A stretch of 31,785 nt of DNA from Lentzea aerocolonigenes (lineage in GTDB: Bacteria; Actinomycetota; Actinomycetes; Mycobacteriales; Pseudonocardiaceae): assembly GCF_000955955.1 (NCBI RefSeq), contig NZ_JYJG01000248.1, positions 1 to 31,785 on the forward strand, given 5' to 3'. The position numbers and the translations under genes are program-made. Below are positions 24,587 through 28,493 of this stretch, piece by piece (position 1 is the stretch's first letter; each line of letters starts with the position of its first letter). The notes under the pieces were generated by a model. That model had not been told where the DNA came from and ran no database searches. It saw nothing but the letters and a program-made list of their open reading frames with translations.

Positions 24587-25489
24587 ATGCCGTGGGGATT
24601 GTCTGGACCGGAGTTCCTTCAGCTGTACTGGATCGGGCTGGCACTGGCCGTGCTGGTCGCGATCGTCGTCCGGGTTCGCGTGCGGGCTGGGCACAGTTCC
24701 CAGCCCGTGCGCTCCCTGGACATGGACGAGCTCGCATATCTTGCGGGCGGTCCACGACGGGTCGTCGAGACCTCCATCGCGCGTCTGCTCACCGCGGGTG
24801 AGCTGCGCACTTCACGGCGTGGCACCGTTCAGGTCACGTCCACCACGAACTCGCTGAACAAGGTGGACCGCGCCGTCATCACCGACAGCCAGCGCTACAC
24901 CAACCGCACGGTCAACCTGATGGTCCCCGCCGTCTCCAAGGACGGCGCCGTGACCGAGATCGGCCGGCGGCTGGAGGAGATGGGTCTCGTCGTCCACCCG
25001 GACGTCGCGAAAAGCGCACTGCGCAAGGGATCCATCGCGTTGTGGGTGCTGCTCGCGGTCGGTGTCGTCCGCCTGGTCAACGGCCTCGCGATCGGTGCGC
25101 CCGTCGGGTACCTGGCGTTGCTGCTCCTGCTCACCGGCGCGGTCATCTTCATCCTGACGCGCCGCGGCAAGAACCTGCGCACGCGCAAGGGGAACGTCGT
25201 GCTCAGCGAGGCTCGTACCTCCTCCAGCAGCAGGATGGCCACGTCCGACGACGCCCTGTACGCGGGCGCGGCCGGGCTCGTTCTCTTCGGCGGCTTGGCC
25301 GTGTACCCGGATCTGGCGGTGCGCAGCTCGTTGCTCGCCTCGTCCGGCAGTGGGTCGAGCTACAGCGGTTACAGCGGTGACGGCGGCAGCTACAGCTCGT
25401 GTTCGTCGAGTTCTTCTTCGTGTTCAAGCGGAAGCAGCTGCGGTGGAGGCGGCGGCTGTGGTGGCGGCTGCGGCGGAGGCGGCGGCTGA
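24587..25489 (+). CDS. TIGR04222-type membrane protein with Cys/Gly/Ser tail (A)
   Basis: A 300-aa protein starting MPWGLSGPEFLQLYW. The first span (about residues 8-30) precedes a cytoplasmic-type domain with 'LAYLAGGPRRVVETSIARLLTAGELRTSRRG', the hallmark of the TIGR04222 family. Two further spans ('WVLLAVGVVRL', 'LALLLLLTGAVIFIL') and a loop follow. The last 50 residues are almost only Ser, Gly, Tyr and Cys, with five cysteines, ending CGGGCGGGGG. I chose the ATG at 24587 because GGGGGTGG lies just upstream; the frame is open to 24515. It is first of three paralogues before an MNIO enzyme. In this family the low-complexity tail is typical, and its role is unknown. Confidence 0.8.
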   Translation: MPWGLSGPEFLQLYWIGLALAVLVAIVVRVRVRAGHSSQPVRSLDMDELAYLAGGPRRVVETSIARLLTAGELRTSRRGTVQVTSTTNSLNKVDRAVITDSQRYTNRTVNLMVPAVSKDGAVTEIGRRLEEMGLVVHPDVAKSALRKGSIALWVLLAVGVVRLVNGLAIGAPVGYLALLLLLTGAVIFILTRRGKNLRTRKGNVVLSEARTSSSSRMATSDDALYAGAAGLVLFGGLAVYPDLAVRSSLLASSGSGSSYSGYSGDGGSYSSCSSSSSSCSSGSSCGGGGGCGGGCGGGGG

Positions 25490-25587
25490 CCCCGTTTTCC
25501 GTTGATCGGTCCTGTTCAGGTAACACCAGGAACCCAGGGGTAGATCTCACGTCGAAGATGCACTGGCACCAGTGAAGGGGAGTGCTG

Positions 25588-26475
25588 ATGGCCAAGTCTT
25601 CGACACCGGGTCCGGACTGGAGACCGGAAGAGATCGGGTTCCTGGCAGGGGGACCGGGCAGGGCGGCGGAGACCGCGCTGGCCCGGCTGATGGACGGCGG
25701 TCTCGTGCGGATCTCCCGAGAGGGACTCGTGACCGCCGTCCACCAGAACGGTCACGGCGCCACGACGCGGATCGAGTCGTTCATCCTCAACGCGCTGAAC
25801 GGCGCGGGCCGCCCGATCGGTCACGTGGTCGGCCCGGCGTCGCACAGCCAGGAGATGGGCTCGCTGCGGCAGAGCCTGACCGACCGGGCGATCATCCGCA
25901 GGCGGTGGGGCAAGGCGAGCGGGGGCGCGACGGCGTTGCGGGTGCTGCTGACCCTGGCCGGTATCGGGTTCCTGGTGGCGACGTTCGCCACCGACCGGGC
26001 TTTCCTGGCCGGCACGATCGTGGCGTGGTTCCTGGCGTTCCTGCTGCGCGGCAAGAAGATGCTCACCCCGATGGGCAAGGGCGTGCTGGGGTACGCGCGG
26101 ACGCACCAGCGCGGCCGCGTCGACGCGGTGGCGGTGTACGGGCTGAGGGGCGTGATGGGGCGTCAGCGGGTCGCGGACCTGTTCGGCCTGCCTCCCAACG
26201 TCCTGCACGCGGCGCCGCTGCGGCTGCAGCACGCCAAGAGGAAGTCGCGTTCGGACAGTGGCGGCGGCTGCGGATCGGGCTGCAGCGGCTGCGGCAGTGT
26301 GTCCAGTTGCTCCACCAGTAGTTGTTCGAGCAACAGCTGCAACAGCAGCAGTAGCTGCAGCAGTTCTAGTTGCAGCAGCAGCTCCAGCAGCTGTTCGAGC
26401 AGCAGTAGCAGTTGCAGTAGCAGCAGTTCGAGCTGCAGCAGCTCGAGCAGCAGCTGCAGCAGTTCCAGCAGTTGA
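25588..26475 (+). CDS. TIGR04222-type membrane protein with heptad Cys/Ser tail (B)
   Basis: A 295-aa paralogue starting MAKSSTPGPDWRPEE. 'GFLAGGPGRAAETALARLMDGGLVRISREG' matches the conserved N-terminal block, but the first membrane span of protein A is absent. Two adjacent spans lie around residues 108-148 ('LRVLLTLAGIGFLVATFA', 'GTIVAWFLAFLLRG'). A second small domain ('VDAVAVYGLRGVMGRQRVADLFGLP') follows. The tail from about residue 229 has 12 cysteines; the last five are spaced exactly seven apart by six serines each. The ATG at 25588 follows GAAGGGGAG. The gap to the next gene is 11 bases. The tail is a likely substrate for the downstream MNIO enzyme. Confidence 0.82.
   Translation: MAKSSTPGPDWRPEEIGFLAGGPGRAAETALARLMDGGLVRISREGLVTAVHQNGHGATTRIESFILNALNGAGRPIGHVVGPASHSQEMGSLRQSLTDRAIIRRRWGKASGGATALRVLLTLAGIGFLVATFATDRAFLAGTIVAWFLAFLLRGKKMLTPMGKGVLGYARTHQRGRVDAVAVYGLRGVMGRQRVADLFGLPPNVLHAAPLRLQHAKRKSRSDSGGGCGSGCSGCGSVSSCSTSSCSSNSCNSSSSCSSSSCSSSSSSCSSSSSSCSSSSSSCSSSSSSCSSSSS
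26371..26454 (+). repeat. Four 21-nt coding repeats (Cys + six Ser)
   Basis: Four consecutive 21-base units encode one Cys and six Ser, followed by a shortened fifth unit before the stop. Serine is written with AGC, AGT, TCG and TCC in a different order in each unit, so the protein pattern is far more regular than the DNA. This argues for selection on the protein and against recent slippage. Confidence 0.8.
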
Positions 26476-27311: not shown

Positions 27312-28129
27312 TGGCGGGGATCACGGACCTGGGCGTCGGCATCGGCTGGCGTTCGGAGATCGACCTGACCGTGGAGCGGCTGCCCGGCGTGGACTTCGTC
27401 GAGGTGGTCGCCGAGAACCTCCACATCGGACACCTGCCGGAGTCGGTGACGTTGCTGCTGGAGCGCGGGATTCCGGTGCTCCCCCACGCCGTCTCGTTGT
27501 CGCTGGGCGGCGCGGACCCGGTCGACCTGAACCGCGTCGAGCACCTCGGCAAGATCGCCGAGGCGGTCGGCGCGCCGATGGTGAGCGACCACGTGTGCTT
27601 CGTCCGCGCCGGTGGCCTCGACTCCGGCCACCTGATGCCGGTGCCGCGCACCAAGGACGCGCTCGACGTGCTCGTCGCGAACGTCAGGCTGGCGCAGCAG
27701 AACCTGCCGGTGCCGCTCGCGCTGGAGAACGTCGCGGCGCTGCTGGAGTGGCCGGACGGTGAGCTCACCGAGGGCCAGTTCCTCGCCGAGCTGGTCGAGC
27801 GCACGGACTGCTGGCTGCTCGTCGACGTCGCGAACCTGTACGCCAACGCCCGCAACATCGGCACGGACCCGGAGCGGTTCCTGGACGAGATCCCGTTGGA
27901 GCGCCTGGCTTACGTGCACGTCGCCGGCGGCGAGCAGCACGGGGACGTCTACCACGACACGCACGCCCACGCGGTGCTACCGGAAGTTCTCGGCGTTCTC
28001 GACGAACTGTGCTCGCGGGTGACACCACCCGGTGTTTTGCTGGAACGCGACGACAACTACCCGTCGGACACCGAAATCGCGAGCGAACTCGCCGCGATCC
28101 GCGCCGTGGTGGACAAGCGCCGTGGGTGA
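27311..28129 (+). CDS. DUF692/MNIO multinuclear iron-dependent oxidative enzyme
   Basis: A 272-aa TIM-barrel protein of the DUF692 family (MbnB, TglH, BufB, ChrH). These use two or three iron ions and oxygen to modify cysteines of ribosomal peptides. Expected metal ligands are visible: Glu35 ('VVAENLHIGH'), His59 ('LPHAVSLSLGG'), Asp93-His94 ('VSDHVCF'), Glu139-Asn140 ('LALENVA'), Asp172 and Asn175 ('LVDVANLYANARN'), His203 ('YVHVAGG'), Asp216 and His218 ('YHDTHAH'), Glu245 ('LLERDDNYP'). So it should be active. The start overlaps the stop of tail protein C as TGATG, and the stop lies inside the start of the next gene. No classical short precursor is adjacent; the three Cys-rich tails are the obvious candidates. 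Confidence 0.92.
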   Translation: MAGITDLGVGIGWRSEIDLTVERLPGVDFVEVVAENLHIGHLPESVTLLLERGIPVLPHAVSLSLGGADPVDLNRVEHLGKIAEAVGAPMVSDHVCFVRAGGLDSGHLMPVPRTKDALDVLVANVRLAQQNLPVPLALENVAALLEWPDGELTEGQFLAELVERTDCWLLVDVANLYANARNIGTDPERFLDEIPLERLAYVHVAGGEQHGDVYHDTHAHAVLPEVLGVLDELCSRVTPPGVLLERDDNYPSDTEIASELAAIRAVVDKRRG

Positions 28130-28493
28130 AATGATCGGGAGCAATGACCTTTCGGCCGCACGCGAAAGGCTTGCCAAGCAGCAAGAAGCACTGCTCATTG
28201 CTTTGCTCGCGAAAGGACCTGTTCCCGCGGGATTCGACGAACAACGCTTCGACGTCGAACGTCGTGCTTTGCTGTCGAAACGCCGCGGCATCGTGCGGAT
28301 GCTGGGACCCGCGGTCGCCGACGAGCTCGGCGACCGGTTCCGGCCGCTCTTCGACGCGTACGCCGTGGAAAACCCGCGTCGTGCGGGCTCACGCGCGCGC
28401 GAGGATGCCGCATCGTTCGCCGAATGGTGCCGGGCCGCAGGAGAACTGTCAGTGAAACGCAAGGCGCGCTGGAAGTTCTGGCAGTCGAACTGA
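28122..28493 (+). CDS. Small MNIO partner-like protein
   Basis: A 123-aa helical, basic protein; GTG at 28122 overlaps the MNIO stop by eight bases, and ATG at 28131 is the alternative start. It contains 'LSAARERLAKQQEALLIALL', 'PVPAGFDEQRFDVERRALLSKRRGIVRML' and 'LGDRFRPLFDAYAVENPR', ending 'RKARWKFWQSN'. From memory, the pattern PxGFDxxRxxxxxRALLxKRxxxV...LGxxFRPLFxxYA resembles a C-terminal extension found fused to some actinomycete DUF692 proteins; here it would be a separate gene. A substrate-binding or scaffolding role beside the enzyme, like TglI or BufC, is inferred and not shown. Confidence 0.75.
   Translation: MGEMIGSNDLSAARERLAKQQEALLIALLAKGPVPAGFDEQRFDVERRALLSKRRGIVRMLGPAVADELGDRFRPLFDAYAVENPRRAGSRAREDAASFAEWCRAAGELSVKRKARWKFWQSN

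What the first reader, a model, noticed from the sequence alone, without database searches (positions are those of the whole stretch)
24587..28493. Candidate modification system: MNIO enzyme with three membrane-anchored Cys/Ser/Gly-tail proteins
Seen: three paralogous TIGR04222-type membrane proteins with low-complexity tails holding 5, 12 and 9 regularly spaced cysteines are followed, with start/stop overlaps, by a DUF692/MNIO enzyme with intact metal ligands and a small partner-like protein. Known: MNIOs (MbnB, TglH, ChrH, BufB) oxidise cysteines in ribosomal peptides, for example to oxazolone/thioamide pairs or thiooxazoles. Inferred: the tails are the substrates, so modification would occur on C-terminal tails fixed to the membrane, with paralogues of different spacing as parallel substrates. 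Heterocycle-studied tails could bind copper or other metals, or cross-link at the cell surface. I know of no experimental description of this pairing.
Basis: partly seen in the sequence, partly recalled or inferred. Interest (0 to 1): 0.87.

Follow-up and report, generated by a model that had tools for sequence, protein, structure and literature searches.

The report
MNIO enzyme with three cysteine-tailed membrane proteins
A soil bacterium carries a gene set that probably lets an iron enzyme chemically alter evenly spaced cysteines on long tails of membrane proteins; such pairs were already predicted from genomes in 2025, and I found no test of the idea in the papers I could search.

Summary
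Three TIGR04222 proteins with 5, 12 and 9 tail cysteines (24587-27311) precede an MNIO/DUF692 enzyme (27311-28129) with conserved candidate ligands and a small partner (28131-28493), in a Lentzea. The pairing and the tail-as-substrate idea are already in print as a prediction (Antoine et al. 2025, PMC12452194); I found no experiment in the library searched. Added here: in 248 family genomes the two occur together in 149 and apart in 10. The partner domain is beside or fused to the enzyme in 98 of 101 loci. In 165 distinct tails no two cysteines lie one or two positions apart (0 of 658 gaps, about 205 expected) and one Arg codon occurs, so isolated cysteines are selected. Charge patterns give two classes: T1-type tails may face outside, T2/T3-type inside; the published view puts tails in the periplasm. 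The soluble domain weakly resembles GPP34/GOLPH3. Against strict coupling, a Streptomyces group keeps a fused enzyme with no Cys tail found nearby. Best reading: the enzyme-partner pair oxidises tail cysteines, perhaps to copper-binding heterocycles; chemistry, metal and topology are untested.

The parts
24367..24429 (+). Micropeptide ORF, 20 aa, ending GTDGEGSSGVDGGSSS, between msrB and T1; no Cys
   Evidence: Found in 22 of 81 loci (18 of the window's genus, 4 of two other genera), upstream of T1; variable columns by codon position 5/3/14 of 16 each, minor counts 19/8/76. Role unknown; not part of the core
24587..25489 (+). T1: TIGR04222 protein with N-terminal membrane helix, membrane hairpin, hydrophobic segment 4, tail with 5 Cys
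   Evidence: TIGR04222 132.5 bits; AlphaFold model pLDDT 75.8, residues 255-293 under 50; segment-4 class H
25588..26475 (+). T2: TIGR04222 paralogue without the first membrane helix; Ser-rich tail with 12 Cys
   Evidence: TIGR04222 62.3 bits; no segment 4, 5 K/R before the tail; tail count
26487..27311 (+). T3: TIGR04222 paralogue without the first membrane helix; tail with 9 Cys; stop overlaps the enzyme's ATG
   Evidence: TIGR04222 64.0 bits; no segment 4, 4 K/R before the tail; tail count
27311..28129 (+). MNIO (DUF692/PF05114) oxidative enzyme, 272 aa; the only PF05114 match found in this genome
   Evidence: PF05114 279.7 bits; one match in the genome; conserved H/E/D/N residues
28131..28493 (+). 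P: partner domain, DUF2063-like (PME-type 2), 120 aa (123 aa from GTG 28122)
   Evidence: PF26136 precomputed for its 65 listed homologues; DUF2063 seen weakly in 18 of 40 aligned relatives, best E 1.6e-4, none for the window protein; fused to MNIO in 14 of 101 loci
23892..24314 (+). msrB, methionine sulfoxide reductase B; frequent upstream neighbour, not shown to belong
   Evidence: TIGR00357 163.5 bits; in 52 of 81 family MNIO loci

Best explanation
A protein-modification operon. The MNIO (taken to be cytosolic; no signal peptide was formally tested) and its DUF2063-like partner P bind the Ser/Gly tails of T1-T3 and oxidise the isolated cysteines one by one, most likely to a Cys-derived heterocycle such as 5-thiooxazole. 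The tails stay attached to membrane proteins. The product is a membrane-anchored row of soft-metal or oxidant ligands; in T2 and T3 it probably faces the cytosol, in T1 perhaps the outside after C-tail translocation. Shown by sequence: gene linkage, conserved candidate ligands, partner linkage and fusion, spacing rule, charge classes. Inferred: that the tails are the substrates, the heterocycle, the metal (copper first), the stress role, and the membrane faces.
For: Co-occurrence: both in 149, TIGR04222 only 8, MNIO only 2, neither 89 of 248 genomes of the family (Fisher p 5e-55, not corrected for descent); by genus, counted by me both, 2 TIGR04222 only, 17 neither of 44. Phylum sample of 346: 21 of 22 genomes with TIGR04222 over cut-off have MNIO, 21 of 26 with MNIO have TIGR04222. 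In 79 of 81 family MNIO loci a T gene lies on the same strand nearby; in the 78 that could score, at least one T has a tail of two or more Cys, and T overlaps MNIO in 55 of 78 by my gene caller's starts. P beside or fused to MNIO in 79 of 81 family loci and 19 of 20 others; fused in 12 of 12 Streptomyces-group loci. Tails: 165 distinct, 14.8% Cys, one Arg codon although CGC is one step from TGC, AGC and GGC; Cys gaps of 1-2: 0 of 658 against about 205 in shuffles, mode 6; CxxC 27 against 80; Ser coded by both TCN and AGY. A known MNIO makes seven 5-thiooxazoles on EGKCG repeats and the product binds copper (PMC13097082, passages).
Against: No experiment. In the Streptomyces group the MNIO-P fusion persists with no Cys tail found nearby in 8 of 12 sampled loci and in 80 named relatives of one of these, where the single scan match (L361) is an ORF with nine K/R at a locus end (the set is biased to that clade, 10 loci are under 11 kb, and the same scan finds tails in only 66 of 81 family loci). 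18 of 21 unlinked T rows (one place counted twice) have Cys tails; 15 of their 18 genomes hold an MNIO elsewhere. The enzyme is far below the BufB equivalog cut-off (197.9 against 310 bits), so its chemistry may differ. Tails have no Lys, so lack the Lys-Cys motif of known 5-thiooxazole substrates.
Confidence: 0.7

Rival explanations
1. The tails work as unmodified thiols: a membrane-bound thiol buffer or metal sponge; the MNIO acts on something else.
For: Unlinked T genes often keep Cys tails (18 of 21 rows); the Streptomyces-group MNIO-P lives with no tail found nearby, so another substrate is likely there.
Against: Cys are never one or two apart and CxxC is depleted, unlike thiolate metal clusters; 79 of 81 family MNIO loci carry T next door, and 6 of 8 T-only genomes show no Cys tail.
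Confidence: 0.15
2. The MNIO modifies a separate short peptide; a candidate is the 20-aa ORF at 24367-24429.
For: It looks translated and is conserved in 22 of 81 loci; PMC12452194 says some MNIOs modify Asp or Asn, and the peptide has two conserved Asp.
Against: Not found in 59 of 81 loci, nearly all of which keep T-MNIO-P; no Cys in 21 of the 22, one in L074.
Confidence: 0.07
3. All tails are outside the cell (published topology), so modified tails of all paralogues act at the surface.
For: Antoine et al. predict periplasmic tails from models of selected proteins; T1-type proteins have a hydrophobic segment 4 and few positive charges after it.
Against: Hairpin flanks are more positive than its loop in 182 of 183 (one tie), residues after TM1 more than before in 107 of 107 (windows of unequal length), so the soluble domain is probably inside; T2/T3-type proteins lack segment 4 and have 1.90 K+R per 10 aa before the tail against 0.24.
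Confidence: 0.25
4. All tails are cytosolic; segment 4 of T1 is a surface helix, not a membrane span.
For: The T1 model shows short broken helices at 228-235 and 243-255, no continuous span; the soluble domain looks weakly like GPP34, whose eukaryotic members are cytosolic (recalled).
Against: Segment 4 is hydrophobic enough for a span in 76 of 167 and positive charges are few after it, a sign of crossing.
Confidence: 0.3

Closest known systems
TIGR04222-MNIO loci described in silico (Antoine et al. 2025, PMC12452194)
   Same: Same two families, mostly in this order, Ser/Gly tails with Cys, PME-type 2 partner; the paper's first example of such a partner is a 115-aa Saccharothrix protein.
   Different: The paper puts tails in the periplasm, finds PME-type 2 in at least 10% of the loci and says many seem to lack a partner; here P is found in 98 of 101 MNIO loci and two tail classes appear. 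No experiment on TIGR04222 in either.
Bufferins / captophorins (BufB, HvfB, FonB; 5-thiooxazole copper peptides, PMC12452194 and PMC13097082)
   Same: MNIO plus DUF2063-type partner, several Cys in repeats, Cys often followed by Gly.
   Different: Those precursors have Sec signal peptides and DUF2282, Lys-Cys or Cys-Lys motifs; here membrane proteins with Ser/Gly tails, PME-type 2 partner, enzyme under the BufB and HvfB cut-offs.
GPP34 / GOLPH3-Vps74
   Same: Soluble part of T1 matches weakly by profile and fold.
   Different: T proteins have two or more membrane helices and a Cys tail; Pfam GPP34 does not match the window's protein.
Microcin B17 precursor (recalled, no call)
   Same: Gly/Ser/Cys-rich low-complexity core turned into heterocycles.
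   Different: YcaO chemistry, short secreted peptide; I did not look for YcaO genes here.

Membership tests
MNIO (PF05114) | Pfam match above gathering score | tested here: met
   279.7 bits against 25
MNIO (PF05114) | Conserved His/Asp/Glu/Asn metal-site residues | tested here: met
   Nine candidate positions in 100-101 of 101 relatives; by-eye match to solved relatives; ligand role recalled
MNIO (PF05114) | Iron-dependent oxidation of a peptide | not testable with these tools
   needs enzyme assay
BufB (NF050167) / HvfB (NF003818) maturases | Equivalog score cut-off | tested here: not met
   197.9 against 310 and 170 against 360 bits
TIGR04222 | Model score above 43 bits | tested here: met
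   132.5, 62.3, 64.0 bits
TIGR04222 | N-terminal membrane helix (model start) present | tested here: inconclusive
   Present in T1; T2 and T3 align from model position 28-30 on and lack it
PME-type 2 partner (Antoine et al. 2025) | Follows the MNIO gene, no DUF2063 signature of its own | tested here: met
   28131-28493; no Pfam hit for the window protein
PME-type 2 partner (Antoine et al. 2025) | Structural relation to DUF2063 protein NGO1945 / TglI | tested here: inconclusive
   Weak DUF2063 matches in 18 of 40; low-confidence model, no useful fold or sequence match in PDB
Bufferin / captophorin precursor | DUF2282 or Lys-Cys motif | tested here: not met
   No Pfam hit for T1-T3 at E 0.01; no Lys in 165 tails
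Bufferin / captophorin precursor | Sec signal peptide | not tested
   No signal-peptide predictor was run
Bufferin / captophorin precursor | 5-thiooxazole groups, copper binding | not testable with these tools
   needs MS, NMR, metal assays
GPP34 | Pfam PF05719 over cut-off | tested here: not met
   No hit for T1; 2 of 54 aligned proteins match at E up to 5, best 1.6e-4
GPP34 | Shared fold or profile similarity | tested here: inconclusive

The most novel reading that the evidence does not exclude
One MNIO-partner pair modifies about 26 cysteines on three uncleaved membrane proteins whose tails lie on both faces of the membrane: T1 outside, T2 and T3 inside. The tail carrier is a GPP34/GOLPH3-like domain in which a transmembrane hairpin takes the place of the membrane-touching loop, giving a permanent membrane-bound metal or redox ligand array, not a secreted RiPP.
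Probability: 0.2. Interest if true: 0.8.

Novelty: new member of a known kind. Interest (0 to 1): 0.5.

Why it matters
If the tails are modified, MNIOs act on whole membrane proteins and not only on small peptides, and many actinomycetes carry an unseen class of membrane-bound modified cysteines. The operon gives a direct test: one enzyme, one partner, three tails with different spacing and perhaps different membrane faces.

Tried and rejected
Disulfide or metal-thiolate cluster tails: not favoured, CxxC depleted and gaps of 1-2 absent. DNA-repeat artefact: not favoured, mixed Ser codons and one Arg codon. DUF4142 protein as a regular stand-in substrate in Streptomyces: rejected, found in 7 of 12 loci, three of them Cys-tailed ones. 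RRE-like fold of the T domain: none of the 50 rows listed is named RRE; absence says nothing. Partner fold search gave nothing useful. S8 peptidase downstream as processing enzyme: seen in 35 of 81 loci, not core. Plasmid search: 5 records at 69-78% identity, three annotated DUF692. In one search one further loose tail match, beside L245's enzyme on the other strand (354 aa, Arg in the tail), was judged spurious and dropped.

Own error, found and mended: my first MNIO and TIGR04222 seed profiles were made from loci not turned to the gene's strand, so they held antisense sequence. Effects: one search placed MNIO in only 21 of 81 loci, so the neighbour profiles used come from those; L117's MNIO was misplaced; undercount P; one search's residue counts are replaced; the MNIO row among the controls is from that alignment, the others are not. 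One search repeats the counts with clean seeds: all 190 T rows confirmed (L002 and L146 are one place), no overlapping pairs on opposite strands. The 'linked' flags behind still come. One search ended with an error after printing the counts used.
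Full report
WHAT IS THERE. The window belongs to a Lentzea: T1 is 96% identical to a Lentzea sp. NPDC006480 protein and P 94%. On the + strand follow msrB, a 20-aa ORF, T1, T2, T3, the MNIO gene and P. TIGR04222 scores are 132.5, 62.3 and 64.0 bits, PF05114 279.7 bits. The genome (648 contigs, 96.6% complete) has one PF05114 match and four TIGR04222 matches, the fourth on another contig. 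Tail Cys counts 5, 12 and 9 are right.

ALREADY IN PRINT. Antoine et al. 2025 (PMC12452194; passages and sections 18 and 21 read) report TIGR04222 as 40% of the more than 1,000 signal-less Cys proteins encoded before MNIO genes, propose subsets of the tails as substrates, place them in the periplasm, and call DUF2063-like partners without the signature PME-type 2. They say a third of genomes with TIGR04222 lack MNIO and that many loci appear to lack a partner. A 2016 Pseudonocardia paper (PMC5183585, one passage) mentions a TIGR04222 peptide in a bacteriocin-like cluster. I found no experiment in the listings of searches of the held open-access library; most subscription papers are missing there.

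LINKAGE. In 248 genomes of the same family (drawn evenly by the tool), 157 have TIGR04222 over cut-off and 151 have MNIO; 149 both, 8 T only, 2 MNIO only, 89 neither, Fisher p 5e-55, without correction for shared descent. By genus I count from those lists 25 both, 2 T only, 17 neither of 44. In 346 genomes of the phylum, 22 have T over cut-off, 26 MNIO, 21 both; by the coordinates the nearest pair of matches is within about 2.1 kb on one strand in all 21. Of 81 MNIO loci of the family read in detail (chosen by hand), 79 have T genes beside MNIO: one T in 35, two in 11, three in 24, four in 8, six in 1. The two without T are L098 and L121.

THE PARTNER. P is found beside or fused to MNIO in 79 of 81 family loci (77 beside, 2 fused: L117, L140) and 19 of 20 loci elsewhere in the phylum (7 beside, 12 fused). 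The misses are L142 (a 2-kb fragment), L121 and L254. In 12 of 12 sampled loci of one group enzyme and P are one protein. I take this group to be Streptomyces, because 79 of 80 named relatives of one member carry that name; P is present in 80 of those 80. P relatives match DUF2063 weakly (18 of 40, best E 1.6e-4). The fusion is good evidence that P is the working partner.

THE TAILS. Of 190 T rows (189 places), 168 have a tail of two or more Cys; 165 are distinct. They are 42.0% Gly, 36.6% Ser, 14.8% Cys. Only one Arg codon occurs, though CGC is one base from the commonest Gly, Ser and Cys codons. Successive Cys are never 1 or 2 apart (0 of 658; shuffles 110 and 95), seldom 3 (27; 80), most often 6 (193; 48). 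Ser is enriched before Cys (58% at -1; 37% in shuffles) and Gly after it (66% at +1; 45%). Single, spaced cysteines are what a per-cysteine modification would need and are unlike thiolate clusters; that step is inference.

DOES CYS TRACK THE ENZYME? Of the 8 T-only genomes, six show no Cys tail (G017, G103, G145, G158, G181, G247); G017 and G247 keep Gly-rich tails without Cys, G158 and G181 have another architecture, G145 is a short protein in a draft. G101 and G094 keep about four Cys but are drafts of 370 and 480 contigs. Against: 18 of 21 unlinked T rows have Cys tails, 15 of their 18 genomes having an MNIO elsewhere; and in the Streptomyces group 8 of 12 sampled MNIO-P loci have no convincing Cys tail nearby, nor do 80 relatives of L245 (one spurious match in L361). 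The scan is not fully sensitive: it finds tails in 66 of 81 family loci, and 10 of the 80 loci are under 11 kb. There the enzyme probably does something else, or acts on tails encoded elsewhere; four extra TIGR04222 places and two extra weak MNIO places in such genomes showed no Cys tail either (loci, scanned).

TOPOLOGY. In 183 T proteins with both hairpin helices aligned, the flanks carry more K+R than the loop in 182, with one tie (windows of 15 and 12 columns); where the first helix is present with residues before it, the side after it is more positive in 107 of 107. So the soluble domain is most likely cytosolic. Beyond the hairpin two classes appear among 167 classifiable proteins: 76 with a hydrophobic segment 4 and 0.24 K+R per 10 residues between it and the first tail Cys, and 74 without it and 1.90; 17 lie between, at 0.59. 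28 of 97 loci hold both classes. T1 is of the first class, T2 and T3 of the second. The simplest reading is T1 tail outside and T2/T3 tails inside. These are my own scale-and-charge scripts, not a trained predictor, and the T1 model shows no continuous fourth helix.

NEIGHBOURHOOD. msrB is in 52 and a HemQ-like gene in 42 of 81 family loci within the fetched stretch; 11 of the 12 Streptomyces-group loci have the HemQ-like gene, one confirmed as HemQ_actino, and 64 of 80 named relatives. SCO6045 of S. coelicolor, after which sources name the P-domain proteins, rises 3.0-fold with 0.15 mM H2O2 in the wild type, among genes not raised in the mutant lacking the HbpS-SenS-SenR system, along with cysteine-synthesis genes (PMC4991794, first part of section 20). 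I did not read the SCO6045 sequence; that it is an MNIO-P fusion is inferred from the domain name and from SCO6041/6042 being protoporphyrinogen oxidase and chlorite dismutase (PMC5069765, passages). Whether S. coelicolor has a Cys tail there was not checked. This hints at redox or heme stress, no more.

VERDICT. A real, well-conserved member of a kind already predicted. What is added is the near-universal partner in these loci, the spacing rule, the two tail classes, the GPP34 lead and the Streptomyces exception.

Noticed in passing
window 24367-24429: Conserved 20-aa ORF with a Shine-Dalgarno-like site between msrB and T1, found in 22 of 81 loci; in L074 a Val is replaced by Cys. Not described in the finding.
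   Followed up: partly
L239, L243-L246, L256-L258; L296-L375: Streptomyces-group MNIO-P fusions with no convincing Cys/Ser/Gly-tail gene nearby, some with DUF4142 and tail-less TIGR04222 genes beside them.
   Followed up: partly
L146 8303-9097 (own genome, contig C464): A fourth TIGR04222 gene with a six-Cys tail lies on another contig than the MNIO gene in the same genome.
   Followed up: no
window 28659-31733: S8 subtilase gene (PF00082) follows P in Lentzea and some relatives (35 of 81 loci); probably a neighbour only.
   Followed up: partly
L121 and L254: Two MNIO genes of apparently another subtype (genomes G142 and G336) with neither TIGR04222 nor P found beside them.
   Followed up: no
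L203 and weak TIGR04222 matches: L203 looks (recalled) like a DUF2207-type membrane protein with a Gly/Ser tail and no Cys; DUF2207_C matches 5 of 54 T relatives weakly, so the Cys tail may have arisen from a Cys-free Gly tail.
   Followed up: no
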